Source: Clostridium sp. AT4 (GTDB lineage: Bacteria; Bacillota; Clostridia; Lachnospirales; Lachnospiraceae). From it: a DNA stretch of 47,831 nt. Numbering within the stretch: the stretch's first letter is position 1; the number at the start of each line of letters is the position of its first letter. Positions 1-47,825 of this stretch are shown one piece after another. Made by a program: the position numbers and the translations under genes. The DNA lies in the NCBI RefSeq assembly GCF_001517625.2, contig NZ_LN999823.1, forward strand, positions 1 to 47,831, read 5' to 3'. A model generated the notes under the pieces. That model was not told the DNA's origin. It did no database searches and worked only from the letters and a program-made list of their open reading frames with translations.

Positions 1-60
<60 letters not shown>

Positions 61-1970: not shown

Positions 1971-2054
1971 TTGTCTACAATTGTCTACCGATTTTTAGAG
2001 AACGCAAAAGGCCGGAACCCTCGAAAAATCAAGCAATTCCAGCCATAAAAAAAA
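1971..2054. other. relic of the right end of a third integrated element
   Basis: TTGTCTACAATTGTCTACC (1971-1989) is a tandem TGTCTAC repeat placed 83 bp from the att core, followed by a hairpin (2012-2044) and an A-run. The intact right end of element 2 has the same order and spacing: repeat at 47671-47690, hairpin at 47711-47740, A-run, core at 47755 (84 bp). No integrase gene lies to its left. I read it as the end left after an older related element was deleted. Confidence 0.55.
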
Positions 2055-2074
2055 GCGCGAGACGGGATTCGAAC
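2051..2074. repeat. prophage attachment site, left copy (attL)
   Basis: AAAAGCGCGAGACGGGATTC followed by GAAC. The same 24 bp recurs at 41336-41359, and 20 bp of it match the T-arm and acceptor stem of the tRNA-Gly gene at 47755-47774. Homology breaks immediately to the right of the core, as expected for an integrase crossover region. Confidence 0.9.
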
Positions 2075-4273: not shown

Positions 4274-4477
4274 TTACTCCTCGCTGTCATCCACGCCGTT
4301 ATTGTTGCGGTCAGATGGGCCACCCACCCCACTCTGATGCTTGTCCGGATGCGGTACATCACACGGGGCATCGTACAGATACGGTGTCGGCTGTTTGGGC
4401 TGCAGATCTGGGCCTGCGTTTACGTATCCTCCCATCCCTGGAATTTTGTCCTGATGTTTGCCTGTTAAATTTGCCAT
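4274..4477 (-). CDS. small conserved phage protein with a Ca-binding-like DxNxNGxxDxxE loop
   Basis: A 67-aa protein of unknown function just upstream of the endolysin. The N-terminal part is rich in Pro/Gly (GMGGYVNAG, QPKQPTPYLY). The end reads SDRNNNGVDDSEE, which fits the 12-residue acidic calcium loop of EF-hand or thrombospondin-3 repeats; this is a pattern match only. No signal peptide or membrane segment. GAGAGG precedes the start. The position between holin and amidase suggests a late accessory function. Confidence 0.65.
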   Translation of the reverse strand: MANLTGKHQDKIPGMGGYVNAGPDLQPKQPTPYLYDAPCDVPHPDKHQSGVGGPSDRNNNGVDDSEE

Positions 4478-4569
4478 ATTTTCTTATCCTCTCTTTCTTC
4501 TAAATGCTGTATAGTAGTTACTTTCTGGTTCTAACCCTGACCAGATCGGGAGATAGATGGATCACCTCC

Positions 4570-5046
4570 TTATAAATTCCCACTGTCGCCGTTTTTATCT
4601 TCTTCTGGGATTTCTGTCGCAGTCTCAATCTTCCGTTTTACAAACCTCAGAACGGGGCTCAGAATCGGAATAACAAGCCCTGTAGCTTCACAATTTTCCG
4701 TAATGCTAATCAGTTCATTAACAACCAACCAGGAGGCAACCATGGCCGCAAACAGCAATGGAAACTGCATCTCGATGTGGAGCGTAGCAGTTACATAAGA
4801 TATCATGCAGTCAATTCCAAAACCGACAAAAATAAGTATGTACATCATTACCTTTTTGACGATTCCCGTAATTGATTTTTTGCTTGTGATCTTTTCACCG
4901 TTCACTTTCGAGGCCGCCAGCCCTGTAAAATAGTCAATAATGTTACAAGGGATAAGCAATGCCAGAGGTACTGCCAAAATTCCAAAGAAACTAAAAAATG
5001 CGCCTGCGGCGGCGCTAATTACATATTCAAATGATTTCTCTTTCAT
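4570..5046 (-). CDS. phage holin (toxin secretion/phage lysis holin family)
   Basis: 158 aa with hydrophobic segments at about residues 9-34 (AAAGAFFSFFGILAVPLALLI), 66-90 (VMMYILIFVGFGIDCMI) and 98-113 (LLFAAMVASWLVV), and a charged C-terminal tail (EIPEEDKNGD). The DYFTGLAASK stretch after the first helix and a conserved NELISI..N segment match the phage_holin_4 family. It would form membrane lesions that release the amidase at the end of the lytic cycle. The two genes are in lysis-cassette order. Confidence 0.88.
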   Translation of the reverse strand: MKEKSFEYVISAAAGAFFSFFGILAVPLALLIPCNIIDYFTGLAASKVNGEKITSKKSITGIVKKVMMYILIFVGFGIDCMISYVTATLHIEMQFPLLFAAMVASWLVVNELISITENCEATGLVIPILSPVLRFVKRKIETATEIPEEDKNGDSGNL

Positions 5047-5063
5047 TCTCTCACCTCATTTTC

Positions 5064-5177
5064 TTAATCTTCCGGATTCTGCTGTAACCATAACTCTGTT
5101 TTTGCCCGCCACAGTTTCGGTACCTCTTCCACGCTCATAAGCCCGGCACGAATCCGATTGCCATAGAAAGCTGCCAT
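5064..5177 (-). CDS. xkdX: XkdX family small phage protein
   Basis: 37 aa, MAAFYGNRIRAGLMSVEEVP onwards. The W--KTE-WL end and the Y--I-AGL-SVE-VP core are characteristic of XkdX-family proteins, which are found after tail-fibre genes in Firmicutes phages and PBSX. Function unknown. The ATG at 5177 overlaps the stop of the preceding gene (TAATG), indicating translational coupling. Confidence 0.8.
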   Translation of the reverse strand: MAAFYGNRIRAGLMSVEEVPKLWRAKTELWLQQNPED

Positions 5178-5566
5178 TATACCTCACCTCCCTCTATCTG
5201 TTCTGCGAGCAGGCTGGATACTTCTCCAAGATCAACAATGGCTTCGTCCTGGATTGCCTGACCTGCCTCCACGTTATCCAGGCGTTTCTCCACCTCTGTC
5301 TTCTCCCGTAAGCAATATTTGGTAATTACTGTCCCGTCTGCCGCCACTACAGAAGTTTCGGACACCAGTACCAAATCCTTATAGGTTCCAACTGTCAATC
5401 CGACTCCGTTCTGAATTTTCACTTCTGCCAGATTCTCCCCTGTCAGTTTCTCCCAGGTCTTTAACATTTCTGCTTTGTTTAATGCAGCTACCTGAATTGC
5501 ACCAAGGGATGCTCCTGCCTCCAGTTCTACAGCAGTTCCGTCCTTTAAAATCATTGTATCTTTCAT
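5177..5566 (-). CDS. conserved phage protein of the tail-fibre/lysis interval
   Basis: 129 aa, not recognised with certainty. The N-terminal half looks like a small beta-rich domain (MILKDGTAVELEAGASLGAI, then VKIQNGVGLTVGTYKDLVL). The C-terminal part (about residues 90-125, EVEKRLDNVEAGQAIQDEAI...EVSSLLAEQ) predicts a short coiled coil. Such genes commonly lie between the receptor-binding proteins and XkdX/holin in clostridial siphoviruses. It could be a baseplate accessory or fibre assembly factor; that is inference from position. Confidence 0.6.
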   Translation of the reverse strand: MKDTMILKDGTAVELEAGASLGAIQVAALNKAEMLKTWEKLTGENLAEVKIQNGVGLTVGTYKDLVLVSETSVVAADGTVITKYCLREKTEVEKRLDNVEAGQAIQDEAIVDLGEVSSLLAEQIEGGEV

Positions 5567-5597
5567 TTTATAGTCCTTTCCGCCTCTATAAAGGCAT

Positions 5598-5621
5598 AAA
5601 AATAAGCCCTTAATCGGGCCT
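5598..5621 (-). terminator. terminator-like hairpin after the fibre locus
   Basis: On the minus strand AGGCCC pairs with GGGCTT (with a G-U pair) and is followed by ATTTTTAT. It lies just outside the predicted invertible segment, so it would follow whichever fibre end is in place. Confidence 0.5.
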
Positions 5622-5925
5622 GTTTACAGGTTACTCTACTTCACAAAATAGCAATTTAAAATCTGCACTCATATTAAAAAATAGCGAGCCACTATCGGGA
5701 ACTGTAGAAGGGATATCATCAGTTACCATACCGCACAATGTCGCAACTCCGAGCGGCTATATATTGGTAGGTGGCTTTTCTAGGGTGACTGGAAATCAAG
5801 CTCTATTAATCAGGGCTTTCACAGAAAGTAGCGTTTCAATTGCAAATATCAGTAATACATCGATCAAATTTAATTCTGTTAGTATCTCATTACTATTTGC
5901 AAAGAAGAGCTTAATGGGCCTATAG
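5614..5925 (+). pseudogene. silent alternative tail-fibre tip (start-less open frame, opposite strand)
   Basis: An open frame on the plus strand runs from after TAA (5611-5613) to TAG (5923-5925), 103 codons, with no ATG before its last few codons and no ribosome binding site. From QNSN (5644-5655) it encodes 89 residues of beta-rich sequence with IPHNVATPSGYILVGGF and SVSISLLFAKK, typical of a fibre tip. The active fibre gene on the other strand has the identical, in-frame QNSN site (6278-6267). Swapping the segment would give a 427-aa fibre with this tip. I read it as a stored cassette rather than a dead gene. Confidence 0.65.
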
Positions 5926-6279
5926 AGGCTATATAGTCATCTTACTGACCAACTAGCAGAAGCGTACCATATTCCCGGGGTTGCGGCTTGTTCAGTTGCA
6001 CGAATCCCCTTTTGTTCTACATATGCACAAAACGTTTTATTCTCATCTGCATTATTGAATAATAAGAAACCTGCACTATGGATTGGGAGAAATTCAGAAG
6101 GTATTTCTTTAGTAAATGTCTGAGTTCTTTGTATTCCGTTTGATCCGACATTAAGTATAGCATAAACAGTAACTTGATGACCTAACCTCATCCAGTTTCC
6201 ACTTAAGGCTGCAACATTCGCATCAAGTGTTAATGTAGATGTATCCAAAGTTTTCTCAAATGTGATATTGCTATTTTGT
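5643..6279. mobile_element. predicted invertible DNA segment in the tail-fibre gene
   Basis: ACAAAATAGCAAT (5643-5655) has its exact inverted copy at 6267-6279. Extending outward gives 17/20 identity (5636-5655 against 6286-6267). Both copies keep the reading frame through codons CAA-AAT-AGC-AAT, one in the expressed fibre gene and one at the head of the start-less plus-strand frame. No invertase gene is near; the prophage encodes only the att integrase. Confidence 0.55.
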
Positions 6280-7280
6280 TGAGTAATCTGATCCTGAAGG
6301 TTCTTTCCAAACGCCGCGTCCAGCCCGAACTTCCCTGCCTCTGTAGTAAGTCCGTTATTAACCAGATATTTAGCGAGCACCGTCTGGAAGGTGTCAGAGG
6401 TAACAACCTTTTCAACCATCTTCTGCACAATCGCATCCAGCAGGTCCTGTACCGTGGATTTCTTCCCGACCCCTGCGCCTGTAAGATCATGAGTGTCTAC
6501 CGCTGATACACTGGCTGCGGTACCATCAAATCCTGCTGATCCAGCCGCCTGCTCTGCGGCCTTCCTCGCCTCTTCACAGTAATACTGAGCATTGTCCGCC
6601 TCATCCCCATCTTCCACGCCACCAACTGCATACCGCTTGGACTGGTCTGAAAAATATTTAGCATTGTTCTTTTCAAAGCTTTCCCCGCCAATAGCCCAGC
6701 CCTGTGCCGTACTCGCTGCCTGTTCCGCTACTCCCTTCGCCGTCTGCGCATCAAGGACATACTGCCGGATAGCAGACATTACAGTAGCTTCTAGCTTCTC
6801 AAGTGTAATTTTCCCATCCGGAATATCCGCAGATACCTCTTTCCCATTCACATTCATTCGGATAACATCCGTACTTTTAAACGTGTATGTATCAATGAAC
6901 TTGGAGAGGGAAACTGTCTGTTTGCTTCCATCTGCCAGTTCCAGGACAAAATTATCTCCCTCCAGATAACAGTTAAGGGCAATCTTCTCCATGGCAGTAT
7001 CCTTTTCCACTTTGCTGCCATCGAACCGGGTAAACGTCATTACGCCGCTGTTCTCATTAAACTCAAAATTGATAAACACATTGGCAAGCTCCGTCTTTTC
7101 TGCTTTATCCTTGGATAAAACCACAATACGGTTATCCAACTCATTGATTCCACTTTCAATATGGTTCAGATTAACAGAATTGATCGGCGATTCAATACTG
7201 GGCTTATCTTTCCAAGTGTACGGGAAATAACTCTTTTCCATTTCAGTTGCCCGTTGTTTCATTCTGCTGAGAATCCCCAT
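5937..7280 (-). CDS. tail fibre / receptor-binding protein
   Basis: 447 aa. The N-terminus has a tail-attachment signature (YTWKDKPSIESPINSVNLNH, then IESGINELD) common in fibres of clostridial siphoviruses. Residues about 60-165 are beta-rich (GSKVEKDTA, LELADGSKQTVSL). A central stretch (165-250) has alpha-helical repeats with NAKYFSDQSKRYA and NAQYYCEEARKAA. The C-terminal 109 residues after QNSN (335-338) form the probable receptor-binding tip, ending in IWYASASW. The tip coding region lies in the predicted invertible segment, so host range may switch. The start overlaps the end of the preceding gene by 38 nt. Confidence 0.85.
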   Translation of the reverse strand: MGILSRMKQRATEMEKSYFPYTWKDKPSIESPINSVNLNHIESGINELDNRIVVLSKDKAEKTELANVFINFEFNENSGVMTFTRFDGSKVEKDTAMEKIALNCYLEGDNFVLELADGSKQTVSLSKFIDTYTFKSTDVIRMNVNGKEVSADIPDGKITLEKLEATVMSAIRQYVLDAQTAKGVAEQAASTAQGWAIGGESFEKNNAKYFSDQSKRYAVGGVEDGDEADNAQYYCEEARKAAEQAAGSAGFDGTAASVSAVDTHDLTGAGVGKKSTVQDLLDAIVQKMVEKVVTSDTFQTVLAKYLVNNGLTTEAGKFGLDAAFGKNLQDQITQQNSNITFEKTLDTSTLTLDANVAALSGNWMRLGHQVTVYAILNVGSNGIQRTQTFTKEIPSEFLPIHSAGFLLFNNADENKTFCAYVEQKGIRATEQAATPGIWYASASWSVR

Positions 7281-7461
7281 CTGTATTCCCTCCCTTCTTT
7301 ACGATCTCATCAAGCGGCCTGCCGGATTCCAGGATGGTCCCGATGGTGCTTACCTTCCTTGCCATTGCCAGACCCGTATACTGGAGACCGTCAACAAAAT
7401 CCATCACCATCTGCATATCCTTCTGGGAATAGACCAGCAGCTTCCCTTTATTTTCTGCCAT
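7243..7461 (-). CDS. small conserved protein upstream of the tail fibre
   Basis: 72 aa, function unknown. It begins MAENKGKLLVYSQKDMQMVM and ends in a polar tail (NTDGDSQQNETTGN). It overlaps the baseplate gene upstream by 14 nt and the fibre gene downstream by 38 nt, so all three are probably translationally coupled. No membrane segment or known motif. Likely a small structural or assembly partner of the baseplate/fibre. Confidence 0.65.
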   Translation of the reverse strand: MAENKGKLLVYSQKDMQMVMDFVDGLQYTGLAMARKVSTIGTILESGRPLDEIVKKGGNTDGDSQQNETTGN

Positions 7462-9523
7462 ACAAATCCTCCTTTATCTGCTCAAGTTCCCTCTGCTGCG
7501 CTGCAAAAGCTCCTGCAAGCAAAGGAATGAAATTCTGGTATCTAAGGGTCATATACCCATCATCCGGCTTTCGGCCAATCAGGGGGTAGTCCAGTCCCAA
7601 CTCCCGTAAAGCCTCTGCCACTTCCTGGGCATAGAATCCAATACCCGGAAGTCCTCCCTGCTTCGTCTTATAGGTAATGGGGCGCAGCCTAGAAATCAGT
7701 TTTCCTGCTGTTTCTGGGTCAATCCGTCTTGCTGCCCGTTTTAGACGTTTATCAGACCGCGACTCTCCTGCAACAGAGCTGTAGATGGAGCGACAGGAAA
7801 TATAGATGAATTGTGCCTCGCCTAAAAAATTGGAATCCCCATCACAATTAATTTTATCTGCTTCCAAGTGATTACAGTTAATCACATCCGCCCCGATCGA
7901 ACTGGTATTTGCAGTACCCCGAAGCTCCATACCAATTGCCACCAATTTACCGGCGGCATTCCATGTGAGATTCCCGTTAGCAGCACCGCCGGAGCCGTCT
8001 TCATTCACCCAGAAATTAGTGCCCTTCAGCACGAAATGGCCTGCTTCCATTACGATTTTAGAACCACTTTTATTTGCCTCCAGGTTGATCTTAGCCACCA
8101 GATCCCCTGCGCTGACCTTCTGCTCAATCTGTCCGGCCATCACCTTGATGGCCCCGGCAAGCTCCACCTCCTGCCCGGTCGCTCGCTTTACCTCTGCTTC
8201 AATTGCATCTGATACCACTTTCAGCTGGGCGGTTGTATTCTTCTCCACGTCAGAGAGTTTTACGGATACCTCTTCCACGCTGCGCACAATAACTGCGGTC
8301 TTTCCTTTGAGCTGTATAATTTCATTGGAGATTCCAAAGCTCTGCCCCTGCTGTTTTGTGCCCTTGGCCTGCATAGTATCCATCATTGCCTGGATCCCGC
8401 TCATGGTCCGATGCAGCACAAAGGTAGCTATCTCAGTATCGGTTGTAATGGCCCGTATGCCGTCCCCTGCCTCAATCCATGGCATGGCATACGATACAAT
8501 TTTTGCTGGGCGGTATGTCTTCCCAGCAATCAGATCATAGACGGACCATGCCAGCTTTGTAAGATCAGCGCTCCCCATGCCATAGGTTAAAAAATTCCCT
8601 TCTACCACATAAGCATTGCTGCCGGATCCCACTACTGCCCCGATATCTCCCTCCTCCTGCCGGATCTGGACACGGTCAATCCCATCAATAAGGTAATCCT
8701 CATATGTGATTGTCTTATAGTATTCCAGATCCTCCGCAGATTGCCAGCCAGACTGGGGGAATAGGTCATTTCCCGGATACAGCGTTTCAGATGGATAGAC
8801 ACCCGTGTTCTGCAGGCTTATATACGCCAGTGCGCCGGTCCGGTCAAAATGGCCGAACACTCCGTTGATCTCACAGATCGCCCGCAGTACATCCCTGCCG
8901 CACAGTGTTTCAGGATCAATGGTCTTACCGATCACCAGGTCATCATTTGGCAACTGTACAAACTTCTGGCTCACTCCGATGTAATCACACAGACTATCCC
9001 TCAGTTCCTTGAGGGTATGTACCGAGGATTCTTCCGGATACATGGCCTGATACCATCCTGATACATCGGTGTCAAATTTTTTCATGCGGTCATATGCGGT
9101 TATTTTCCGCTTCCTCCGGTCTGCCTGACGGATCACACTGTCCACAGTATAAATCCCATAAGCCATTGAGTAATCGCCTATGGATAATGTAGCCGTAAAC
9201 TCTTTTCCTTTTATATCGTCCTCTACGTCTGCTACTGTAAGCGTCAGTTTTGCAGACTCGCAGCTTCCCCAAACAATGTTATCGCCGGAGCTCAGGCTTT
9301 CGGTCAAACTCAAAGTCTCCGCACAAATGCGGTCCATCCCAATTGTAAGCCATGGACTTCCCGCATCTGCAGGGAACAAATCACCGGAAGGATATAAATC
9401 ATTGGAGGGATACAGGGTGTCCACATTCCGATTGAAGAATGACAGCTCCAACGTTCTTACTGTCTCCTCGCAGTTATTGTCTCCCCGGAATCTCTGCTTG
9501 ATTTCCTCTGCAATCTCTAACAC
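7448..9523 (-). CDS. baseplate/tail tip protein with C-terminal S74 intramolecular chaperone
   Basis: 691 aa starting at GTG behind GGGAGG. Residues 1-400 resemble prophage tail tip (Tal/baseplate hub) proteins, with LYPSNDLYPSGDLFP near residue 37 and a related LYPGNDLFP near 248. Residues 400-470 predict coiled coil. Residues about 470-590 are a beta-helix-like stalk. The C-terminus has the peptidase S74 chaperone pattern: SDKRLKRAARRI, RLRPITYK, GIGFYAQEVAEAL. S74 domains help trimerise the stalk and then cut themselves off at the Ser of SDKRLK, using the Ser-Lys dyad. It would sit at the distal tail and carry the fibre. Confidence 0.85.
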   Translation of the reverse strand: MLEIAEEIKQRFRGDNNCEETVRTLELSFFNRNVDTLYPSNDLYPSGDLFPADAGSPWLTIGMDRICAETLSLTESLSSGDNIVWGSCESAKLTLTVADVEDDIKGKEFTATLSIGDYSMAYGIYTVDSVIRQADRRKRKITAYDRMKKFDTDVSGWYQAMYPEESSVHTLKELRDSLCDYIGVSQKFVQLPNDDLVIGKTIDPETLCGRDVLRAICEINGVFGHFDRTGALAYISLQNTGVYPSETLYPGNDLFPQSGWQSAEDLEYYKTITYEDYLIDGIDRVQIRQEEGDIGAVVGSGSNAYVVEGNFLTYGMGSADLTKLAWSVYDLIAGKTYRPAKIVSYAMPWIEAGDGIRAITTDTEIATFVLHRTMSGIQAMMDTMQAKGTKQQGQSFGISNEIIQLKGKTAVIVRSVEEVSVKLSDVEKNTTAQLKVVSDAIEAEVKRATGQEVELAGAIKVMAGQIEQKVSAGDLVAKINLEANKSGSKIVMEAGHFVLKGTNFWVNEDGSGGAANGNLTWNAAGKLVAIGMELRGTANTSSIGADVINCNHLEADKINCDGDSNFLGEAQFIYISCRSIYSSVAGESRSDKRLKRAARRIDPETAGKLISRLRPITYKTKQGGLPGIGFYAQEVAEALRELGLDYPLIGRKPDDGYMTLRYQNFIPLLAGAFAAQQRELEQIKEDLYGRK

Positions 9524-9984: not shown

Positions 9985-12900
9985 TTAATAATCCAAGGCC
10001 AGCTGCCTCCCAGTCTGCTTTCTGTACTCACCAGCCCCGGATCTCCAAAGATCTACCACATCATCTTTATTGACTCCAGGCTTTGCTAAAATTGCCCTCA
10101 ACAGGTCATTCTGTTCTCGCAGCAGCTGATTCTGTTCCGTATTTGCCGCATATACGGCCGTTGCAATTCCATCCGTGATCTGGTCCTGATTTGCCACCGC
10201 AGACCTGCGGCCAAAACGTCCGATCATCTCCGGTCCTGCTTCATTGGCTATGAACAGCTCACCTCGATCTGGGAAGCCTCCAGCTGCAAAGGTTGGAACC
10301 TTACCCAGGCTGATCTTCCCGCCTTCATAGAGGGTTTGCCCCATAATGGTAACAGGATCGATAGTAAAGGTAAGTTTCTCATTCAGCCAGCTGGCGAATT
10401 TATTCCATAATGCCTTTACCCCCTCAATAGCTGCATCAAAGGATGATTCGAGGCCATCTTTAATACCAGATGAAACTCCTTTCCAGGTTTCTACCTTAAA
10501 CCATTTGGTAACATGGCTGTCCCACCAGTTCTTTACATCTGTATCCCACTGTCCCACCGTTTCCTGCCACTTTGTTTTCAGGCTGGTTTTAATGGATTCG
10601 TATAATTCGCTCCACTTCTGCAACGTAAACCATGGGGCTATATGCTCGTTGAACCACTGGTTCAGGGATTCGGTCCATTCTGGGAATGTTGCAGTAAAAC
10701 CACCTATGATTCCCTCCAGGATATACTGTCCATATATCTCCATATTTTTTGCTGGAGATGCGATACCAAAAATGGAACAGATCCCTTCTACAATCCAGTT
10801 AAACAGATCTACAATGGGTTCACTCAAAAAAGATACCCCTGCTGCAAGACCTGCTGCAAGACCTGCTGCAAGGCCTGCAATTATGTTTTCACCAAATTCA
10901 AGGAAATTGTCAGCCTGAAAGGCCTTATCAAAAAATCCCTTTGCCTTTTCCAAAAGAGAAGATGAAAAATCCCAGTTAAAGAGAGTATCTCCGATCCCTT
11001 TCCAGAGTTTTGTGACCCATTCGCCACCCTGAACTGTATCAATCACAAGGGCGACAATAGCGCCAACCAAGGCTCCTATAGGGCCGCCAAGAAATGCACC
11101 TATACCTGCACCCTCTGCAATCAATAAGCCCTCTCCCATTGCGTTTAGTACGCTCTGACCGAAATTTTCACGGATAAACGTGTCAATGGCATCAATTATC
11201 TCTTTGCCGAGTACATCTACAGCAGGCCCCCAGCCGCCAACCAAAGAAATCCGCTTAATTTCAGTAAGTAAGATTTCCTTTATACCTAAAGAAATAGCAT
11301 TAATCTTAAGCTGTATATCTTCCAAAGTGACTTTTTTCAGCTTTTCTTTTAACAACTTGACGAGGAAAGATGTAAGATTGAATCCGAAGGCGACCTTCAA
11401 AATTTTCTTAATCAGCAGCACACCAATAATAATCCCGACCGTTTCAATCTCAAGATTGCCTAAAAACTCCAGCATTCCGGCAATTACCTGGCTCCAATCC
11501 ACATTCTCTAATGCTGTATCAAGTGTTTCCCACAGCCCAAAAACCCAGACATTAATACTTTCTGCAAAAGAAGCAAAATCAAATGTTCTAAAGAATTCAT
11601 TAATACTGCTTGCAATGGAAAGTCCCAAATTCGTCCAGTCAAAGTCAGATCCAAAAGCCAGCGCAAGATAAATAGCCGTATTTAAGGCACTTGCTATTGC
11701 TACTCCTACCTCACCAAACAGCTCCGGAGAAATAAGCCCATTTAAGAATCGGGCAAAGCCACTTCCAAACCCTCTTGCTGATTCATACGCTTCATTCCAG
11801 TTGACACTGCGAAGAGAGTCTGTAATGGCAGCTCCAATATAAGCACCAACGGAATAATAGTCCCCAGCCTTAAACGCATCAATGATCTTACTGGATATCA
11901 GATCCGCCTGAGCCTGTACATTTTCCATTCCCAGATCCAAATCCTCAAGGATTCCTCCTCCGCCACCAACTCCACCGCCTCCAGATCCACGGTTGGAGCT
12001 TAAGTTGTTCAGCTCATCGAACTTGGCAAGCTGCCGGTTGAGTTCCTTGGCTGATCCCGCAGCGCTTCCCATGTTGTCTGCGATCTGCCCGGAAGATCCG
12101 GCAGCCGAATCCATGGAACCGGATACCCCTCCGGCGTTTCCGGATGCATCACCGAAAATGGCTTCTGTAAATGCCTTAAAATAGTTAGCCAATGTCTGGA
12201 GCTTCTCCAAAATCGCATTGATTACGGTAATAACCGGGGTAAATACATTGATAAGACCCTGTCCAATAGTTGCCTTTAAGGACTCAAACTGCAGCTGGAG
12301 GACCCGCACCTGATTGGCCCAGGAATTGCTTGTCCGGGCAAAGTCACCGGAAGCATCCGACAGCTGGGACATGACAAACCGGTATCGGAGCAGTACCTTC
12401 TCCTGCTCGGTCATCTTATTGGTTGTCTTTCCAAGCCCCTCATTCAGTGCGTATTGGTCAAGGGCCGTCTGAGTCATAACCACGCCCAGGTCCTTTAAGC
12501 TTTCTGTTTCTCCCGTAAAGATTGATTTCAGCTTCGTGTAAGCCTCATCCTGAGACAGATTGTAAAAGGATGCTACATCACCGGTAAGCCCCGTGATCGC
12601 AGCCGACATCTCATAGCCTGCATTTCCCGCGATCCCGAAGGATTTTGCCATCGCGCCGTAGGTACCCATATACTTTTTAGCCATCGTCTCCGACAGACCA
12701 AACGATTTTGCCGCGTCTTTCGCAAAAGCGTCCACCCTGCCGGACATGGAGCCAAAGGTCACATCTACAACGTTTTGTACTTCCGCCAGATTGCTTCCCA
12801 GATCAATACAGGATTTTCCAAATGCCACGATTGCTCCAATACTTAATACCGAAGCAACCACAGCCCCTACCTTCTTCCATGATTGGGAAATCCTGGCTGT

Positions 12901-13041
12901 CTGACGTTCTATCCGGTCTGCCACCTGGGATGTCTGGGCCCTTACCTTTTCCATCTGCTCCCTGTAAGGCTTCGTATATGCTTCAATGATAACCTTTAAT
13001 TTCTCCAGAGTAATCCCACTTCCGTCCGTTGTCCTCACCAC
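9985..13041 (-). CDS. phage tail tape measure protein
   Basis: 1018 aa, the longest gene, right after the tail chaperones. The N-terminus is a coiled coil (YREQMEKVRAQTSQVADRI) followed by the tape measure core motif FGKSCIDLGSNLAEVQNVVD. The middle has Gly-rich linkers (GSGGGGVGGGGG about residue 355) and hydrophobic helices (LLIAEGAGIGAFLGGPIGAL). The C-terminus has FAAGGFPDRGELFIANEAGP, found in many Firmicutes tape measures. It sets tail length and is ejected with the DNA; at about 0.15 nm per residue the tail would be near 150 nm. Start is GTG. A 36-bp tandem repeat lies inside (10841-10876). Confidence 0.95.
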   Translation of the reverse strand: MVRTTDGSGITLEKLKVIIEAYTKPYREQMEKVRAQTSQVADRIERQTARISQSWKKVGAVVASVLSIGAIVAFGKSCIDLGSNLAEVQNVVDVTFGSMSGRVDAFAKDAAKSFGLSETMAKKYMGTYGAMAKSFGIAGNAGYEMSAAITGLTGDVASFYNLSQDEAYTKLKSIFTGETESLKDLGVVMTQTALDQYALNEGLGKTTNKMTEQEKVLLRYRFVMSQLSDASGDFARTSNSWANQVRVLQLQFESLKATIGQGLINVFTPVITVINAILEKLQTLANYFKAFTEAIFGDASGNAGGVSGSMDSAAGSSGQIADNMGSAAGSAKELNRQLAKFDELNNLSSNRGSGGGGVGGGGGILEDLDLGMENVQAQADLISSKIIDAFKAGDYYSVGAYIGAAITDSLRSVNWNEAYESARGFGSGFARFLNGLISPELFGEVGVAIASALNTAIYLALAFGSDFDWTNLGLSIASSINEFFRTFDFASFAESINVWVFGLWETLDTALENVDWSQVIAGMLEFLGNLEIETVGIIIGVLLIKKILKVAFGFNLTSFLVKLLKEKLKKVTLEDIQLKINAISLGIKEILLTEIKRISLVGGWGPAVDVLGKEIIDAIDTFIRENFGQSVLNAMGEGLLIAEGAGIGAFLGGPIGALVGAIVALVIDTVQGGEWVTKLWKGIGDTLFNWDFSSSLLEKAKGFFDKAFQADNFLEFGENIIAGLAAGLAAGLAAGVSFLSEPIVDLFNWIVEGICSIFGIASPAKNMEIYGQYILEGIIGGFTATFPEWTESLNQWFNEHIAPWFTLQKWSELYESIKTSLKTKWQETVGQWDTDVKNWWDSHVTKWFKVETWKGVSSGIKDGLESSFDAAIEGVKALWNKFASWLNEKLTFTIDPVTIMGQTLYEGGKISLGKVPTFAAGGFPDRGELFIANEAGPEMIGRFGRRSAVANQDQITDGIATAVYAANTEQNQLLREQNDLLRAILAKPGVNKDDVVDLWRSGAGEYRKQTGRQLALDY
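10841..10876. repeat. 12-bp tandem repeat inside the tape measure gene
   Basis: GCTGCAAGACCT occurs three times head to tail (third copy GCTGCAAGGCCT), encoding GLAA repeats on the minus strand. Copy number change would add or remove four residues per unit without a frameshift. Confidence 0.8.
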
Positions 13042-25685: not shown

Positions 25686-25728
25686 CCCATACAAAGGAGA
25701 AAATACAAAATGGTTTATCCATCCAAAC

Positions 25729-25801
25729 GGACCCTCCAGGAATCGAACCCGGGACGATGTGGTTTGCAAGCCAACTGCTCTACCGACTGAGCTAAAGATC
25801 C
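25729..25801 (-). tRNA. degenerate tRNA-like gene (Ala-UGC or Cys-GCA type loop)
   Basis: 73 nt with acceptor stem GGATCTT/AGGGTCC, D-arm GCTC-AGTCGGTA-GAGC, and T-arm CCGGG-TTCGATT-CCTGG. All three pair with only G-U wobbles. The anticodon arm is odd: GTTGG-CTTGCAA-ACCAC leaves two mismatches, while an 8-nt loop CTTGCAAA pairs only three base pairs. Reading the loop by U33 gives UGC (Ala) or GCA (Cys). No CCA; the next base is G. It could be an inactive phage tRNA, a tRNA mimic or a frameshift-type tRNA. Confidence 0.6.
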
Positions 25802-25812
25802 GGAGAAGGGGG

Positions 25813-25972: not shown

Positions 25973-26407
25973 TTAATTACTTTCCATAAATCGGATAAAT
26001 TCTTTTCGTATTCCCTCTTCCGTGGCCTTCCGTCCCATCTTCACAGCTACCTGCGCCCAAGTCAATTCCTCAAATATCCTATATCGGATAATCCGCTGCA
26101 TTCTGGGTGAGATTGTATTAAGCCATGCTTCCACCTGACGCTTAATCTTCTCTGCGTTCCGGATCCGCTCCTCCAGTAACTTCTCCATACGATCCAACTC
26201 ATCCGGATTCTTAACAGCTGCATACCCAAGCCCCTCCAAATGATAGGTCTGTAACGTGTACGGGAACTCATGCGCAGAGCCCTTGACACTGTCCTGCTGG
26301 ATCTGGCTCCGATGCTTCCTCAGCTTCCGGATCTCATCCTTGGTGTCCTTAATCAGCTCGCAGGCATCTATGTATTGCTCCAATATCTGCTTGTCCAACG
26401 GTATCAC
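25973..26407 (-). CDS. sigma-70-like late transcription regulator (DUF1492/ArpU type)
   Basis: 144 aa. Residues 1-95 are helical (ACELIKDTKDEIRKLRKHRS; then DELDRMEKLLEERI). The C-terminal third reads ISPRMQRIIRYRIFEELTWA and QVAVKMGRKATEEGIRKEF, a region-4 sigma-like helix-turn-helix. Such proteins activate late genes in Firmicutes phages (ArpU, RinA, DUF1492). Its place as the last early gene, before the putative late promoter and terminase, fits. It overlaps the preceding gene by 4 nt. Confidence 0.78.
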   Translation of the reverse strand: MIPLDKQILEQYIDACELIKDTKDEIRKLRKHRSQIQQDSVKGSAHEFPYTLQTYHLEGLGYAAVKNPDELDRMEKLLEERIRNAEKIKRQVEAWLNTISPRMQRIIRYRIFEELTWAQVAVKMGRKATEEGIRKEFIRFMESN

Positions 26408-26634
26408 CTCCTCGCCCTCAAAATTCTCTGTCTGGCCTCATCCCACTCAGCCGCCCACATCTCTGCTTCTACCCGGACAATCAGGTACCGCTTCTGGTAC
26501 AGTACTCCCATGTCGCTGTACTTATCGACCTGTGGCCTGCACTTCCATCCAAATCTCTTTTGCAGCTCAATGCCGCTGTACCGCCCCACAAGTTTTCCGC
26601 AATCATACAGGTCATAATATACTGGCCCCGGCAT
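26404..26634 (-). CDS. small early phage protein
   Basis: 76 aa, MPGPVYYDLYDCGKLVGRYS at the start, then GIELQKRFGWKCRPQVDKYS, ending in Arg-rich DEARQRILRARR. The segment K--GRYSG-ELQ--FG may form a small DNA-binding or replication-accessory fold, but it is not a family I can name. GGTGATG lies before the start and the stop overlaps the late regulator by 4 nt. Hypothetical but well supported as coding. Confidence 0.6.
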   Translation of the reverse strand: MPGPVYYDLYDCGKLVGRYSGIELQKRFGWKCRPQVDKYSDMGVLYQKRYLIVRVEAEMWAAEWDEARQRILRARR

Positions 26635-28046: not shown

Positions 28047-29681
28047 CTATTTTCCTTTCTGCAATGCCTTCAAAAACTCCACCAGTTCTGTCTCACTGTC
28101 TGGATACCGGCTGTACGTCTCATGGCGCTGCCATCTTCCATAAGCCCCAGACGGATGCTTCTCTGGCTCCGGTCCTCCAACCAGATGAAGGTATGAGGAT
28201 TCAAAATCCTGACCGGTGAACTCATTATGCTGGGTGTATACTTCCACAATCAGCCTTGCCCCGTTATCAAAATCATACTTGTAATACCGGGCTCCGATAT
28301 GCTCATCTGCATACCATAGCCCCCATGACTTATAATCTCTCAGCCATGCCTTGCGCTGGTCATTATTCTTCATGACCGGAAGCTCCGGCTGTTCGGATTC
28401 TTCCGGCTCCGGCATTTCCAGGTCGTACAGCATCCCCGCAAGGGCTGCCACCAGTATTTTCTTTTTCCGGAGCAGTTTCGGCGGAAGCTCTTCCACTGCA
28501 TTGACCTTCACCATCTCATCCAGGAGTGCTTTTTCCTTTTCCAGCATCTCCCGAAGCAGCCCCATGTCTGTAAGCTCAGTATCTTCCTCTGGTTGCGACG
28601 TCGCAACTTCCCCCGGTTCTTCCCCGCTGCTATTTTCGCAGCAGATTTCCTCATTCTGCTGCACTTTTGCAGCAAGCCGTTCCGGCTCCTGATCCAGCGC
28701 CCTCATAGCCCGACCACAAATATATTCGCAAGGACTCTTGCAGTGCTTACAGCATGGGCTTGGCTCCCCGTCTCCGGCCCGGTGATAAGCCAGATCGTGG
28801 TTCACGAACTCACAAGTATCTCCTACAAGTTCACGGATTCCATCCAGATCTCTAATCTCGCACGGAAACGGATTCCCGCAGGGTGCCTCTACACACCACC
28901 GGTCTTTTTGCCGGATCCCACACTCCATAGAGCAGGAATCACAATAATGGCCTCCCTCACATCCTTCTGTAGCAATCAGGCTGTCTGCCGGATATTCCCG
29001 CTTGGGTGTCCCATAGGCCGATAGCTGATGGGCTGGACAGTTTTCCCGTTGCGACGTCGCAACGCTCTCCACCGGCAGAGGCTCCACTTCAGGCATCAAG
29101 TCCTCCACCGATATCTCACAGCTCTGCATAGCTGCTCTTTCTGGTTCCGGCGGTACATCCGTCACATCTGGAGCAGCCTCCGGCTCAATCCCCGGAAAGT
29201 CTGTAATACTGATCTGCCCCGGAAGCTCCACATACGGGATTTCCTTAGGCTGTTTCATGGCTCGGATCTGGCGCACGGTCATATCTGGAGTTACCTGCTC
29301 CAACTGCTCATCATCAAGCCCAAGCATCTCCTGAAGCTGTGCTTTGCTGAAATCCCTGTACCGATCATCCAGTATGGGGCTGTTGCCTCCCTTGGAAAAC
29401 CGGATGCACCGGTCTATATAGCGTTTGGTGGTTGACCGGCTGAAACCGAACTGCCTGGCAGCATACTCATTGATATCGCTGTATCCGTATTCCTGGAACT
29501 GATTACGATCCCGCACATACATCAGCCAGTACCCGATGGATATCACACTTCTGGCGGCCGTCTTAAGGTCTGTATGTATGTACCGCCCGATCTCATCCAG
29601 TGGGATCTCCATCTGGTACCACTCCGGGCCTGTATGGTCAATGGTTCCTGTCTCAGGAACCATGGTATTCTCATCTTCCAT
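28047..29681 (-). CDS. ParB/HTH-like early protein with central Cys-rich domain
   Basis: 544 aa. Residues 45-130 contain a ParB-like helix-turn-helix (INEYAARQFGFSRSTTKRYI, then DRCIRFSKGG). Residues 170-220 and 355-385 are Pro/Glu-rich linkers. Between them, about residues 217-345, lies a domain with some 20 Cys (GHYCDSCSMECG, CCKHCKSPCEYICG), probably several zinc sites. The C-terminal 100 residues (EHIGARYYKYDFDNGARLIV) form an unrelated domain. Both linkers contain the in-frame palindrome GTTGCGACGTCGCAAC, encoding VATSQ. Role is likely DNA binding in replication or partition; not certain. Confidence 0.65.
   Translation of the reverse strand: MEDENTMVPETGTIDHTGPEWYQMEIPLDEIGRYIHTDLKTAARSVISIGYWLMYVRDRNQFQEYGYSDINEYAARQFGFSRSTTKRYIDRCIRFSKGGNSPILDDRYRDFSKAQLQEMLGLDDEQLEQVTPDMTVRQIRAMKQPKEIPYVELPGQISITDFPGIEPEAAPDVTDVPPEPERAAMQSCEISVEDLMPEVEPLPVESVATSQRENCPAHQLSAYGTPKREYPADSLIATEGCEGGHYCDSCSMECGIRQKDRWCVEAPCGNPFPCEIRDLDGIRELVGDTCEFVNHDLAYHRAGDGEPSPCCKHCKSPCEYICGRAMRALDQEPERLAAKVQQNEEICCENSSGEEPGEVATSQPEEDTELTDMGLLREMLEKEKALLDEMVKVNAVEELPPKLLRKKKILVAALAGMLYDLEMPEPEESEQPELPVMKNNDQRKAWLRDYKSWGLWYADEHIGARYYKYDFDNGARLIVEVYTQHNEFTGQDFESSYLHLVGGPEPEKHPSGAYGRWQRHETYSRYPDSETELVEFLKALQKGK
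28594..28605. repeat. TGCGACGTCGCA palindrome, copy 3
   Basis: Part of the 16-bp palindrome GTTGCGACGTCGCAAC (28592-28607), in frame as VATSQ after the Cys-rich domain. Confidence 0.75.
29050..29061. repeat. TGCGACGTCGCA palindrome, copy 4
   Basis: Part of the 16-bp palindrome GTTGCGACGTCGCAAC (29048-29063), in frame as VATSQ before the Cys-rich domain of the same gene. Confidence 0.75.
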
Positions 29682-40061: not shown

Positions 40062-41321
40062 ATGGCAACTGCAAAGAAACTTCCGTCCGGCTCATGGCGC
40101 TGTCTGGCCTACAGCCACACGGAACGGATATATGATGAAAAAAACCAGAAATGGAAAAATAAACGGATCTATGAATCTTTTACTGATGACGACCCCAGTC
40201 CGGCAGGACGGAAACGGGCTGAGCTGGCTGCTGCACAGTTTCAGGCGTCCAAAACACCTGACAAGATCCGGAAACGGCAGGATTATGGAAAGCTCACATT
40301 ATCCCAGGCAATCGACAAATATATTGAATCCAGAGAGAACCTGAACCGTTCTCCCACTACGCTCCAAGACTATCGGTGCATCCAGAAGAATGCTTTTCCT
40401 GATCTGATGGATACTCCCATCAAAGATATTGATATAACAATCCTTCAGGAAGCTCTAAGCGCAGAAGCCCGCAGACCGGCCAACAGCCCCTCTAAAAAGG
40501 GTAAACCCATATCTGCCAAGCGTGTACGCAATGAGTGGGGCCTGATCCGCCCTGTGCTGAACAAATACGGTGTAAATGAGCTCGACTTCGAACAGATAGA
40601 ACTCCCCACTGTTACACCCCGACTGGTGGAACTTCCGCCGGCAAAAACCGTCCTGAACATCATTAAGGGGACTGATATCGAATTACCTGTATTGCTGGCT
40701 GCCTGGCTGTCCTTCTCCATGTCTGAGGTCCGAGGGCTGACAAAATCCAAGTCTATCTCAGGAAACTACATTACAATCCATGAGGTGGTTGTAGACATTA
40801 ACAATAAGCCAGTACGGAAAGAACTGGCTAAAAACCCAACACGTAACCGCCGCTTACAGATCCCGCCATACATACAGAATCTAATCAACCAGGTAGATGG
40901 TGATGTGCTTGTACCTATGAGCGGCAGGGCGCTGTATCACCGTTGGATTAAGCTTCAGCATGATAATGGGATGTCCCCCATCACATTCCATGACCTCCGG
41001 CATCTTAACGCCTCTGTTATGGCTCTGCTCAGGATTCCGGACAAATATGCCCAGGAGCGCGGCGGATGGAAAACCGATGAGGTAATGAAAAGGATCTATA
41101 CACAGACTTTCTCAGATGAGCGTGTGCGCGTTGACAATACCATAGATAACTACTTTGAAAGCATTGTAAATTCGGAGAAGTCCTCTGCAAATGATAAAGA
41201 AAATCTATCACCGGAAGAGCTCATAAAACTCTTTAAAGAACGCAATCCGGATGGCTGGTATAAGGTTTTAGAAAATGCCATGCAACACGAAATGCAACAT
41301 GACACGAAAAAAGCCCGGTAA
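40062..41321 (+). CDS. int: prophage tyrosine integrase
   Basis: 419 aa. N-terminal arm-binding part (about residues 1-70), SAM-like core-binding part (75-180) and catalytic domain with R224 (SEVRGL), H310 and R313 (HDLRHLNAS), W336 (GGWKT) in the place of the second His, and nucleophile Y346 (RIYTQTF). It recombines the phage att site with the tRNA-Gly 3' end. The stop is 15 nt from the right att core; the last codons lie in the arm-type repeat. AAGGAGG upstream. No excisionase gene was recognised. Confidence 0.95.
   Translation: MATAKKLPSGSWRCLAYSHTERIYDEKNQKWKNKRIYESFTDDDPSPAGRKRAELAAAQFQASKTPDKIRKRQDYGKLTLSQAIDKYIESRENLNRSPTTLQDYRCIQKNAFPDLMDTPIKDIDITILQEALSAEARRPANSPSKKGKPISAKRVRNEWGLIRPVLNKYGVNELDFEQIELPTVTPRLVELPPAKTVLNIIKGTDIELPVLLAAWLSFSMSEVRGLTKSKSISGNYITIHEVVVDINNKPVRKELAKNPTRNRRLQIPPYIQNLINQVDGDVLVPMSGRALYHRWIKLQHDNGMSPITFHDLRHLNASVMALLRIPDKYAQERGGWKTDEVMKRIYTQTFSDERVRVDNTIDNYFESIVNSEKSSANDKENLSPEELIKLFKERNPDGWYKVLENAMQHEMQHDTKKAR
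41281..41310. repeat. integrase arm-type sites, right prophage arm
   Basis: TGCAACACGAAA (41281-41292) and TGCAACATGACACGAAAA (41293-41310) repeat the motif found at 2200-2225 near the other end. Confidence 0.7.
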
Positions 41322-41335: not shown

Positions 41336-41359
41336 AAAAGCGCGAGACGGGATTCGAAC
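41336..41359. repeat. att core shared by the prophage right end and element 2 left end
   Basis: The same 24-bp core as at 2051-2074, tRNA T-arm/acceptor sequence without the rest of a tRNA. It is the junction of the two tandem elements. Confidence 0.9.
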
Positions 41360-43488: not shown

Positions 43489-43806
43489 ATGGTAAAAGTA
43501 AGCTTAACTAAAGATCAGGTATTCCCAAAAGGCGGCTATTTAGCCGAAGTCAAGGAACGCCATACGATTAAGGACGGCACTTGGACTCCAGAGATTGAAG
43601 GCTGGAATTACATCGTCGCATCAAGAGCCGGCTTCGATAAGATCACCGTCAAAACTAATGACAAAGTACCAAAAATCACGCCTGAACAGCTGGAAGCTTC
43701 TGAAAAAGATATTTCCGTCACGTTTAAAGGCTTTGTTGGAAAAATTTACAATGTTAACGGAAAAGTCGGTATTTCCGCTACAGCTGAGGAGGTGATTCTC
43801 CAATGA
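43489..43806 (+). CDS. small conserved ICE protein (DUF961-like)
   Basis: 105 aa, beta-rich. KGGYLAEVKERHTIKDGTWT, then PEIEGWNYIVASRAGFDKIT and a C-terminal ISATAEEVIL. Size and place (first gene before the FtsK-type gene) match the small DUF961/orf23-type proteins of Tn916-family elements, but I am not certain of the family. GAGGAGG upstream; the stop overlaps the next start (ATGA). Confidence 0.6.
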   Translation: MVKVSLTKDQVFPKGGYLAEVKERHTIKDGTWTPEIEGWNYIVASRAGFDKITVKTNDKVPKITPEQLEASEKDISVTFKGFVGKIYNVNGKVGISATAEEVILQ

Positions 43807-44525
43807 TAAGACGCTTGATAGAAAATATACAAGATGCATACCTTGCCAGTGATTGGAAAACTTTTGCAAAGTACTGTTTTATTCTTGTTCCGCCAATTAT
43901 CGTTGTCATCATCGGGGCTGTATTACTCGTCAATTTTATTATGAAAAATTTTGATGCGTTCATGATTGCTACAGCAGCTATCATTGCCGTTGTTGGATTT
44001 TCCACACAAAGCAAGTCTGTCGCAAAAAAAGCTGAAACACCTGCCACTAAAAATGCAGGAAATAACATTCTCTTTTTTAATAAGATTTTATTGAGAAATA
44101 TTTTTCTTATTTTTAAAGAAAATCATCGAGCATTCCACGTGATTCCGCCAACCACATTCGGAGATTTAAAGGATGATTTAGGCTCTCAATACGAGCCTTC
44201 GAAAGGCTGTAGCGTTTACCGTTTCAAGATTATGTCAGATGGTGCAGCTCTGGAAGAAAATCTGTTTTCTGAAATATTAACCTCCAAACTGGAGTCGAAG
44301 CTTGCTGACGGAAGTATGAACCTTGGACGTGCTACGGTCGAATATCACAACCGATTGTACCCCAGGATATTTGTGGACGAAGTAATATTGGTTTCAGGTG
44401 CATGGCATATTTCTCTTGTTATTGTAGATACGCCAGAAGCTGCTAACTACATTGATACAAAAGAAAATACCGCCTATATGTATCATAATGCACAACAGCT
44501 AAAGGTATTCGATGATGATTTTTAA
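43803..44525 (+). CDS. membrane half of a split FtsK-like translocase
   Basis: 240 aa. Two membrane helices at about residues 25-47 (FILVPPIIVVIIGAVLLVNF) and 51-68 (FDAFMIATAAIIAVVGFS), then a soluble domain (HRAFHVIPPTTFGDLKDDLG, YRFKIMSDGAALEENLFSEI). FtsK/TcpA-type proteins normally have the membrane helices and the ATPase in one chain; here the ATPase starts in the next gene with a 14-nt overlap. I infer a two-subunit pump. Alternative: an unrelated membrane partner. Confidence 0.6.
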   Translation: MIRRLIENIQDAYLASDWKTFAKYCFILVPPIIVVIIGAVLLVNFIMKNFDAFMIATAAIIAVVGFSTQSKSVAKKAETPATKNAGNNILFFNKILLRNIFLIFKENHRAFHVIPPTTFGDLKDDLGSQYEPSKGCSVYRFKIMSDGAALEENLFSEILTSKLESKLADGSMNLGRATVEYHNRLYPRIFVDEVILVSGAWHISLVIVDTPEAANYIDTKENTAYMYHNAQQLKVFDDDF

Positions 44526-45264
44526 AACTGAAATTCCCTTTTGTCTTGATGAAGAGTATTTTCAACTTGGTATCATGAAATACTTAAACTTTTCTGACTT
44601 TAGGGTTCAGGGACAAAGATGCCTTGTTTGTGGGCCTAGCGGAAGTGGTAAGACGGTGCTTACCGCTTCCCTTCTGGGGAAATTAAGTCTATATATACCT
44701 AATATTTGTATATACATTGTGGATTATAAGGGAATGGATTATACCTATTGTGAGGGAATGGCAAATTATTATGCTGTAGATCATGCTCTTACTGGATTTA
44801 ATACATTCTTTGAATTGTTTGAAAACCGCTTGTACAAGAGAGTACCATCCAATCACTTCGTACTGCTTATGGTGGACGAATTTCCTTCGCTCTTAATGTC
44901 TCTTTCCAAGAAAGAACAGGAAGAAATCAAAGGTAAACTTGCCCGTATGCTAAATCTATCAAGAAGTTTTCGAATCCACCTTTGTTTTGCACTACAGCGT
45001 CCCTCCGCAGACGTTCTATTAGGACGGGAAAATTTTAACCATCGCTTTCTAATGGGTTCTATGGCTAATAACAAAGAGAGTGTTGCCATGATAGCCAATG
45101 AATACAAGGACATTATTGAACCTTGCCCTGTGGGTGTCGGTTATTATATATCGGATATTCAGATAAAGAAAATCCGTTCTGTACTTCCCAGAAATACCCC
45201 AAAACTACATAAAGTTATATGTGAAGCTGTAAACAGGAGGCCGTCAGGCGGTGCGGAGCAATAG
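44512..45264 (+). CDS. FtsK/SpoIIIE-like DNA translocase ATPase
   Basis: 250 aa, only the motor domain. Walker A GPSGSGKTVL at residues 41-50, Walker B VLLMVDEFPS (D122, E123), and an FtsK-like ALQRPSADVLLGRENFNHRF region (about 161-180) where FtsK proteins have QRP-ADV. Such proteins move double-stranded or nicked DNA through membranes and act as the sole transfer motor in AICEs. No DNA-sequence-reading gamma domain. Confidence 0.82.
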   Translation: MMIFKTEIPFCLDEEYFQLGIMKYLNFSDFRVQGQRCLVCGPSGSGKTVLTASLLGKLSLYIPNICIYIVDYKGMDYTYCEGMANYYAVDHALTGFNTFFELFENRLYKRVPSNHFVLLMVDEFPSLLMSLSKKEQEEIKGKLARMLNLSRSFRIHLCFALQRPSADVLLGRENFNHRFLMGSMANNKESVAMIANEYKDIIEPCPVGVGYYISDIQIKKIRSVLPRNTPKLHKVICEAVNRRPSGGAEQ

Positions 45265-45278
45265 CCTAGAGGCCTCTG

Positions 45279-45304
45279 GGAGTGCCCTGCTTGCAGGGTG
45301 CTCC
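45279..45304 (+). other. 12-bp hairpin upstream of rep (candidate double-strand origin or attenuator)
   Basis: GGAGTGCCCTGC pairs with GCAGGGTGCTCC around TT. A GC-rich stem in A/T-rich surroundings 30 nt before an HUH rep gene fits a nick-site hairpin; TTT follows, so a weak terminator is also possible. Confidence 0.45.
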
Positions 45305-45334
45305 TTTAACTCGATTAACAGGTGACATTATGCC

Positions 45335-46297: not shown

Positions 46298-46465
46298 ACA
46301 ATATATAAAATCAAACATATATAAACGAAAAATACAAACACAAAAAATAACTATATAATATAAAAATATATATCTATCTAAATATCTAAACTTCAAAAAT
46401 TACCCAGAAAAATAATTCAGAAAAAATTTATGAATCATACACCACCGTTATGATACAGGTGGACT

Positions 46466-47740: not shown

Positions 47741-47753
47741 TATAAAAAAATAG

Positions 47754-47825
47754 AGCGCGAGACGGGATTCGAACCCGCGGCCCCCACCTTGGCAAGGTGG
47801 TGCTCCACCACTGAGCCACTCGCGC
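47754..47825 (-). tRNA. tRNA-Gly (anticodon GCC)
   Basis: 72 nt: acceptor stem GCGCGAG/CTCGCGC, anticodon loop TTGCCAA giving GCC, T-arm GCGGG-TTCGAAT-CCCGT, discriminator U, no encoded CCA. Its last 20 bases are the att core for all insertions here. Integration restored the 3' half, so the gene remains intact. Confidence 0.95.
47755..47774. repeat. att core inside tRNA-Gly (right copy)
   Basis: GCGCGAGACGGGATTCGAAC, identical to 2055-2074 and 41340-41359. It continues as tRNA sequence only here, so this copy is next to the true chromosomal half of the site. Confidence 0.9.

What the first reader, a model, noticed from the sequence alone, without database searches (positions are those of the whole stretch)
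5614..7280. Tail-fibre tip switch: opposite-strand cassette and in-frame inverted repeat
Sequence: a start-less 103-codon frame on the plus strand faces the end of the fibre gene. ACAAAATAGCAAT (5643-5655) is inverted at 6267-6279, both in frame as QNSN, and 17/20 bases match outward. Inversion of 637 bp would replace the last 109 fibre residues with 89 others. Knowledge: Mu-like phages swap fibre ends by G-segment inversion with a dedicated invertase. Here no invertase gene is present, so a host recombinase or the repeat alone would have to act.
Basis: partly seen in the sequence, partly recalled or inferred. Interest (0 to 1): 0.88.

Follow-up and report, generated by a model that had tools for sequence, protein, structure and literature searches.

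The report
Phage tail-tip flip switch, enzyme missing
A dormant virus in a gut bacterium carries two alternative ends for its tail fibre, arranged so that flipping a 0.6 kb DNA segment would swap them; related gut viruses have the same arrangement, several with a flipping enzyme, but this virus has none of its own.

Summary
In detail: a fibre gene (5937-7280, minus) faces an open plus-strand frame (5614-5922), and ACAAAATAGCAAT is inverted and in frame (QNSN) in both; inversion would exchange 109 terminal residues for 89. The 13-bp repeat alone is not rare window-wide, but is locally (P about 0.006). Related prophages share the layout: 9 of 16 fibre-homologue loci, and 5 of 12 loci reached through a recombinase. 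All copies of a 6-bp core (here TAGCAA) match within 13 of these 14 loci, while six cores occur between loci. Relatives encode a tyrosine recombinase without an arm-binding domain, beside the cassettes or 8-18 kb upstream. In two sister prophages identity ends inside the site and the tips differ; a silent tip of one relative is 56% identical to an expressed tip of another. The window prophage has no such enzyme: homologues of the two genes that flank it in a relative overlap directly. It is best read as an orphan two-tip module that works like the Rin shufflon (tyrosine, not Mu-Gin serine) and needs an enzyme in trans. Flipping was not observed (no reads; one orientation in the assembly), and the second tip itself has no known homologue.

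The parts
5937..7280 (-). tail-fibre / receptor-binding gene, 447 aa; constant part up to ...LQDQITQQNSN, then resident tip of 109 aa
   Evidence: 60% and 66% identical to the fibre of Enterocloster alcoholdehydrogenati C5-48 / G119 up to about the site. 'Fibre' rests on position after the tape measure and tail genes and on relatives; its own profile matches are weak or uninformative (phrog_17196, annotated kinase, 2.4e-13; phrog_2012 minor tail protein 0.0083; no Pfam)
5614..5925 (+). silent opposite-strand cassette: 103 open codons and stop; the last 89 codons, after QNSN, form the alternative tip
   Evidence: P(open frame) 0.0044
5643..5655 (+). crossover site copy 1 (ACAAAATAGCAAT); proposed strand-exchange core TAGCAA at 5649-5654; then TTTA
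6267..6279 (-). crossover site copy 2, inverted; proposed core 6268-6273; then TATC (weaker match to TTTA)
5643..6279 (.). predicted invertible segment, 637 bp with both repeats
   Evidence: only this orientation is in the assembly
5177..5566 (-). gene that follows the cassette region in several relatives (MKDTMILKDG...)
25973..26407 (-). late-gene regulator (phrog_36 transcriptional regulator, 9.6e-16); 82% identical to one in G119
26404..26634 (-). small gene, 37% identical over 78 aa to the gene before the tyrosine recombinase in the second G299 prophage; here it overlaps the regulator by 4 bases with nothing between: the enzyme's place is empty
40062..41321 (+). prophage integrase (tyrosine family), not taken for the invertase
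2051..2074 (.). left attachment repeat (24 bp, also at 41336), bounding the prophage to about 2051-41359
41336..41359 (.). right attachment repeat

Best explanation
5614-7280 is a two-tip inversion module. The fibre stalk is constant; two alternative receptor-binding tips lie tail to tail on opposite strands. A XerC/D-like tyrosine recombinase without the arm-binding domain of phage integrases would bind the two inverted sites and exchange strands in the 6-bp core TAGCAA, inverting about 0.6 kb so that the stalk reads into the other tip in the same frame. Relatives encode such an enzyme next to the cassettes or upstream in the same direction; this prophage has none, so it is an orphan that can flip only when an enzyme is supplied in trans by another prophage or the host, and may be frozen in this strain. 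Shown: anatomy, frame, site and its recurrence, enzyme near the module in relatives, its absence here, change of tip at the site between sister prophages. Inferred: which enzyme acts, the exact crossover, supply in trans, change of host range.
For: Fibre / opposite-strand tip / in-frame site in 9 of 16 fibre-homologue loci (window included) and 5 of 12 loci fetched through a recombinase. Core identical in all copies in 13 of these 14 loci; six cores between loci: TAGCAA, TAGTGA, TACGGA, TAGTAA, TAGAAA, TCAAAA. In G033:C44 a tyrosine recombinase lies between cassettes with TAAATAGTGATTTA, the site of the orphan locus G033:C7 in the same genome. Enzyme beside the cassettes in G114, G033:C44, G365, 8-18 kb upstream in G299 (two prophages), G313, G191, G338, G335. 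The four tested carry only core-binding and catalytic domains in Pfam. G300/G308: 99.4% identity over 4592 bp ends inside the site, tips differ. Silent G119 tip 56% identical over 97 aa to an expressed G299 tip.
Against: No reads, and one orientation in the one assembly. The second tip has no homologue found: 2 of 397 family genomes matched, itself and one spurious; none in phages, viral contigs, Pfam; two PDB matches at E 1.3. Arms around the core are less constant than the core: TTTA/TTTG follows it in at least one copy in 9 of 14 loci, not in G114, G365, G338, G335, G191; the window's fibre copy has TATC. Six of 12 fetched recombinase loci showed no such pair. No close invertase in the genome: best of six matches is C7:869560, 34% identical, in an hsdS locus.
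Confidence: 0.77

Rival explanations
1. A frozen relic: the module came from an inversion system but has lost the enzyme for good; the plus-strand tip is decaying or used only by exchange between phages. (Overlaps with the best explanation, which leaves present activity open.)
For: No invertase in the prophage, overlapping genes at its usual place; weaker fibre-side arm; in G300:C1 the enzyme lacks about 74 codons; the G308 prophage (L050) has one tip and no copy of its sister's site.
Against: The cassette frame is still open over 103 codons and both cores are perfect; an orphan locus with intact sites occurs in G033:C7, in a genome whose other shufflon has the same site and an enzyme.
Confidence: 0.35
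2. A serine recombinase does the flipping (Gin/Din-like, as the first reader suggested by analogy with Mu, or a large serine recombinase of a prophage).
For: Same geometry as the Mu G segment (recalled). The genome has 12 Resolvase hits, one in a 249-aa frame. Two of the loci without a tyrosine invertase, G119:C23 and G033:C7, have a large serine recombinase in the same prophage region (L036 15290-16861, L065 11686-13146), probably their integrases.
Against: The recombinases found beside cassettes are tyrosine recombinases. The window prophage has no serine recombinase and its integrase is a tyrosine one. The site does not resemble hix/gix/cix (recalled). My regular-expression scan of 28 sequences reported no serine recombinase but missed the two named above, so it counts for nothing.
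Confidence: 0.05
3. Chance: a random 13-bp inverted repeat and an unrelated antisense open frame.
For: Window-wide such a repeat is expected 0.67 times; the second tip has no homologue.
Against: Local P 0.006 and frame P 0.0044; both copies match the core found in other loci.
Confidence: 0.03

Closest known systems
Rin shufflon of Bifidobacterium prophages (Mavrich et al. 2018, PMC6109161; passages read)
   Same: Constant receptor-binding-protein N-terminus, variable C-terminal cassettes, short crossover site (11 bp), tyrosine recombinase without arm-binding domain; tips 6-30% identical to each other
   Different: There the enzyme flanks the cassettes and there are more of them; here two tips, no enzyme, another site (TTCCCTAACCC there)
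Second inverted locus of tRNA-Met-integrated bifidophages (same paper, passages)
   Same: About 500 bp inverted at an 8-bp site among structural genes, no flanking recombinase, enzyme proposed in trans: the nearest precedent
   Different: Site CAGGGTTA; neither gene had an identifiable function there; inversion was seen between two prophages, here not
Rin shufflon of Eggerthella lenta prophages (PMC8778435; passages read)
   Same: Tyrosine recombinase, small tip genes, 8-bp repeat in the receptor-binding gene
   Different: Site ttccgtat; enzyme next to the cassettes
Mu Gin / P1 Cin / p15B Min (recalled; also described in PMC6109161 passages)
   Same: Inversion swaps tail-fibre ends
   Different: Serine recombinase
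HsdS-inverting tyrosine recombinase locus (example G389, locus L102; identified by eye from hsdM/hsdS-like frames)
   Same: Same recombinase family; four inverted TAAA-N6-TTTA sites, the arm pattern of G033
   Different: Target is the restriction specificity gene; core TTCTCG

Membership tests
Rin-type tail-tip inversion system | Constant fibre N-terminus plus at least one alternative C-terminus on the opposite strand | tested here: met
   (that the second frame is a tip is inferred from relatives)
Rin-type tail-tip inversion system | Short in-frame inverted crossover site at the junction of constant and variable parts | tested here: met
   13 bp exact, QNSN in both frames
Rin-type tail-tip inversion system | Dedicated tyrosine recombinase without arm-binding domain in the locus | tested here: not met
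   none in the prophage. Hence not filed as a Rin member, but as an orphan that works like one
Rin-type tail-tip inversion system | Both orientations observed | not testable with these tools
   no reads; one orientation in the assembly
Gin/Cin/Min serine inversion system | Serine invertase linked to the segment | tested here: not met
   none of the genome's 12 Resolvase hits is in the window
CTAAA-N6-TTTAG site family (defined in this report) | Identical 6-bp core in all copies of the locus | tested here: met
   TAGCAA in both copies
CTAAA-N6-TTTAG site family (defined in this report) | CTAAA left arm and TTTAG right arm | tested here: inconclusive
   left CAAAA in both copies; right TTTAA (cassette) and TATCA (fibre); right arm also poor in 5 of 14 loci

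The most novel reading that the evidence does not exclude
Orphan tip switches such as this one are shared goods: they keep the site of a family-wide tyrosine invertase and are flipped in trans by whichever member is present, another prophage (as may be in G033, where orphan and enzyme-bearing shufflon share the site) or the host's own HsdS invertase, which would tie a phage's receptor choice to the restriction-modification switch of its host.
Probability: 0.15. Interest if true: 0.8.

Novelty: new variant of a known kind. Interest (0 to 1): 0.56.

Why it matters
The tyrosine-invertase tail-tip systems that my paper searches brought up are from Bifidobacterium and Eggerthella prophages. Here the design recurs in prophages of one Firmicutes family, with a defined crossover core, two places for the enzyme gene, and orphans without one. 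That makes the 'invertase in trans' idea, proposed for one bifidophage locus, testable: sites and candidate enzymes are now named. It also gives a simple sequence signature for finding hidden second tail tips.

Tried and rejected
Fibre and tip searches in viral contigs gave nothing, so no flipped copy of this prophage or of two related ones could be found there. Second tip: the one outside hit (G410) lies antisense in a MiaB-like frame (by eye) and is spurious. A second AAATAGYRATTT in the genome (C7:311372) has no inverted partner within 1.5 kb. The G313 enzyme (P0002) was first taken as the general invertase; stretches of its close relatives showed no fibre pair by the exact AATAGYRAT pattern; a wider repeat search then found CTAAAT-type pairs at the fibre in G338, G191 and the more distant G335, while G355:C8, G038, G214, G355:C1, G051 and G355:C10 still showed none that I recognised. 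The G000 hsdS locus has no TAAA-N6-TTTA match, so that enzyme's own site is unknown. Paper searches (open-licence PMC; subscription papers and preprints not held) listed no account of this system in Lachnospiraceae that I could see from titles and abstracts. No structure could be predicted.

Dropped or partial: of 16 fibre-homologue loci, 6 showed no cassette (G119:C1, G308:C66, G242, G268, G164, G042; the last four seen with about 1.5 kb flanks only), and 1 (G299:C1:827774) has the inverted site pair but no cassette frame that I confirmed. In G300:C1 the site is not in the fibre homologue itself but in a tail gene about 1.5 kb further on. Parablautia locus L024 was not counted: its contig ends in the fibre. 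From the recombinase search (62 of 397 genomes) I fetched 12 of the places listed, chosen as the best matches plus a few weaker ones. The loci come from searches seeded by this fibre or by one recombinase and are not a random sample.

Full report
What is there. The window is the whole of contig C2 of a 3.4 Mb, 7-contig genome, in the same genus as G119, whose fibre loci match those fetched from Enterocloster alcoholdehydrogenati C5-48. A prophage lies between 24-bp repeats at 2051-2074 and 41336-41359, with its late genes on the minus strand: terminase, tape measure (9985-13041), tail genes, the fibre (5937-7280), then holin- and amidase-like genes (names by eye).

The finding. Downstream of the fibre stop the plus strand is open over 5614-5922. 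ACAAAATAGCAAT at 5643-5655 is exactly inverted at 6267-6279 and is in frame, as QNSN, in both. After QNSN there are 109 residues in the fibre and 89 in the facing frame. The repeat alone is not rare in the window (0.67 expected), but is so locally (P 0.006), as is the open frame (P 0.0044).

Relatives. Fibre homologues were found in 8 of 299 family genomes and 7 of 17 genus genomes (the window's genome and G119 are in both), 16 distinct loci in all. Nine (window included) have an opposite-strand frame that carries the same short site in frame: G000, G119:C23, G033:C7, G114:C37, G300:C1, G300:C3, G299:C1:1403843, G307:C62 and G313:C6; in G300:C1 the partner is a neighbouring tail gene, not the fibre homologue itself. 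One more (G299:C1:827774) has the inverted site pair only; six showed none. Of 12 places fetched because they encode a relative of the G313 enzyme, five have a fibre-like frame with an inverted in-frame site and a facing frame: G033:C44, G365, G338, G335, G191; one is an hsdS locus (G389); six showed nothing that I recognised.

The site. Aligned on the reading frame, the copies read AATAGCAATTTA / AATAGCAATATC (window), AATAGTGATTTA twice (G033:C7), AATAGTGATTTA twice (G299), AATAGCAATTTG twice (G300:C1), AATACGGATTTA in all copies of G300:C3, and so on. Where clearest (CTAAATAGTGATTTAG in G033:C7) this is a palindrome CTAAA-N6-TTTAG. The six central bases are the same in all copies of a locus in 13 of 14 loci; the exception, G307, has two copies with TAGCAA and one with TTCTGA, which is itself repeated inverted inside the fibre frame. 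They differ between loci (six kinds). That is what is expected of the overlap of a tyrosine recombinase, where partner sites must match (established knowledge); N6 as the overlap is my inference. The arms are less constant: TTTA or TTTG follows the core in at least one copy in 9 of 14 loci. An hsdS-inverting member of the family (G389) has four TAAA-TTCTCG-TTTA sites: same arms as G033, other core.

The enzyme. In G114 and G033:C44 a tyrosine recombinase lies among the cassettes (76% identical to each other); in G365 it is next to fibre and cassette; in G300:C3 a partly masked one shows 63-64 residues of similarity. In G299 (two prophages), G313, G191, G338 and G335 one lies about 8 to 18 kb upstream of the fibre in the same direction (positions); near G300:C1 a copy lacks about 74 codons. 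Pfam finds only core-binding (SAM-like) and catalytic domains in the four tested. In the second G299 prophage it sits between a small gene and a late regulator, before terminase-like genes. In the window the corresponding genes, 37% and 29% identical over 78 and 52 residues (the regulator 34% over 64 to that of G300), overlap by 4 bases with nothing between. Nor was a relative of the enzyme found in the stretches of G119:C23 and G033:C7 that I fetched; both have a large serine recombinase. In the window's genome the best of six matches (C7:869560, 34% to the G313 enzyme) lies in a type I restriction locus and groups with the hsdS enzyme of G389 (99/99 support).

Evidence that the site is used. 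Prophages of G300:C3 and G308 are 99.4% identical over 4592 bp; identity stops inside the AATACGGATTTA site of the fibre, resumes (94.8% over 2.7 kb) inside another copy of the site, and the tips differ; the G300 assembly has runs of N here. The silent, opposite-strand tip of G119 is 56% identical over 97 residues to the expressed tip of the second G299 prophage and 41% over 80 to that of G300:C3, so opposite-strand frames can be real fibre tips in this group. The window's own second tip has no homologue found, which for such tips is weak evidence either way. No flipping was seen: one orientation, no reads.

Judgement. The locus works like the Rin shufflon in design but lacks its defining enzyme, so it is an orphan, closest to the second bifidophage locus of PMC6109161, for which supply in trans was proposed. 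Whether it still flips is open.

Noticed in passing
window 28592-28607 and 29048-29063: A perfect 16-bp palindrome GTTGCGACGTCGCAAC occurs twice, 456 bp apart, inside a 544-codon frame (28047-29681); a possible operator or replication site.
   Followed up: no
window 25727-25802: A tRNA-Ala (TGC) gene lies inside the prophage, between early and late genes.
   Followed up: no
window 43489-47668 and tRNA-Gly 47753-47825: A separate element-like gene group with its own tyrosine integrase ends near a tRNA-Gly at the contig end; an integrase match with identical scores lies at the start of contig C4, so the two contigs may join here.
   Followed up: no
L055 (G000:C7:2040000-2054000), 5414-9098: Four tyrosine recombinase frames in tandem in the host chromosome.
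   Followed up: no
L101 (G033:C44:14000-26000): A multi-tip shufflon with its recombinase between the cassettes lies near a 1318-codon YD-repeat-like frame; the short fibre frame is only 161 codons.
   Followed up: partly
L051 (G300:C3:242000-254000), 4274-7414: Five copies of AATACGGAT, two runs of N and the same tip twice: an assembly that may be confused by alternative orientations.
   Followed up: partly
window 1-60: The contig begins with the start of a 16S rRNA gene (minus strand).
   Followed up: no
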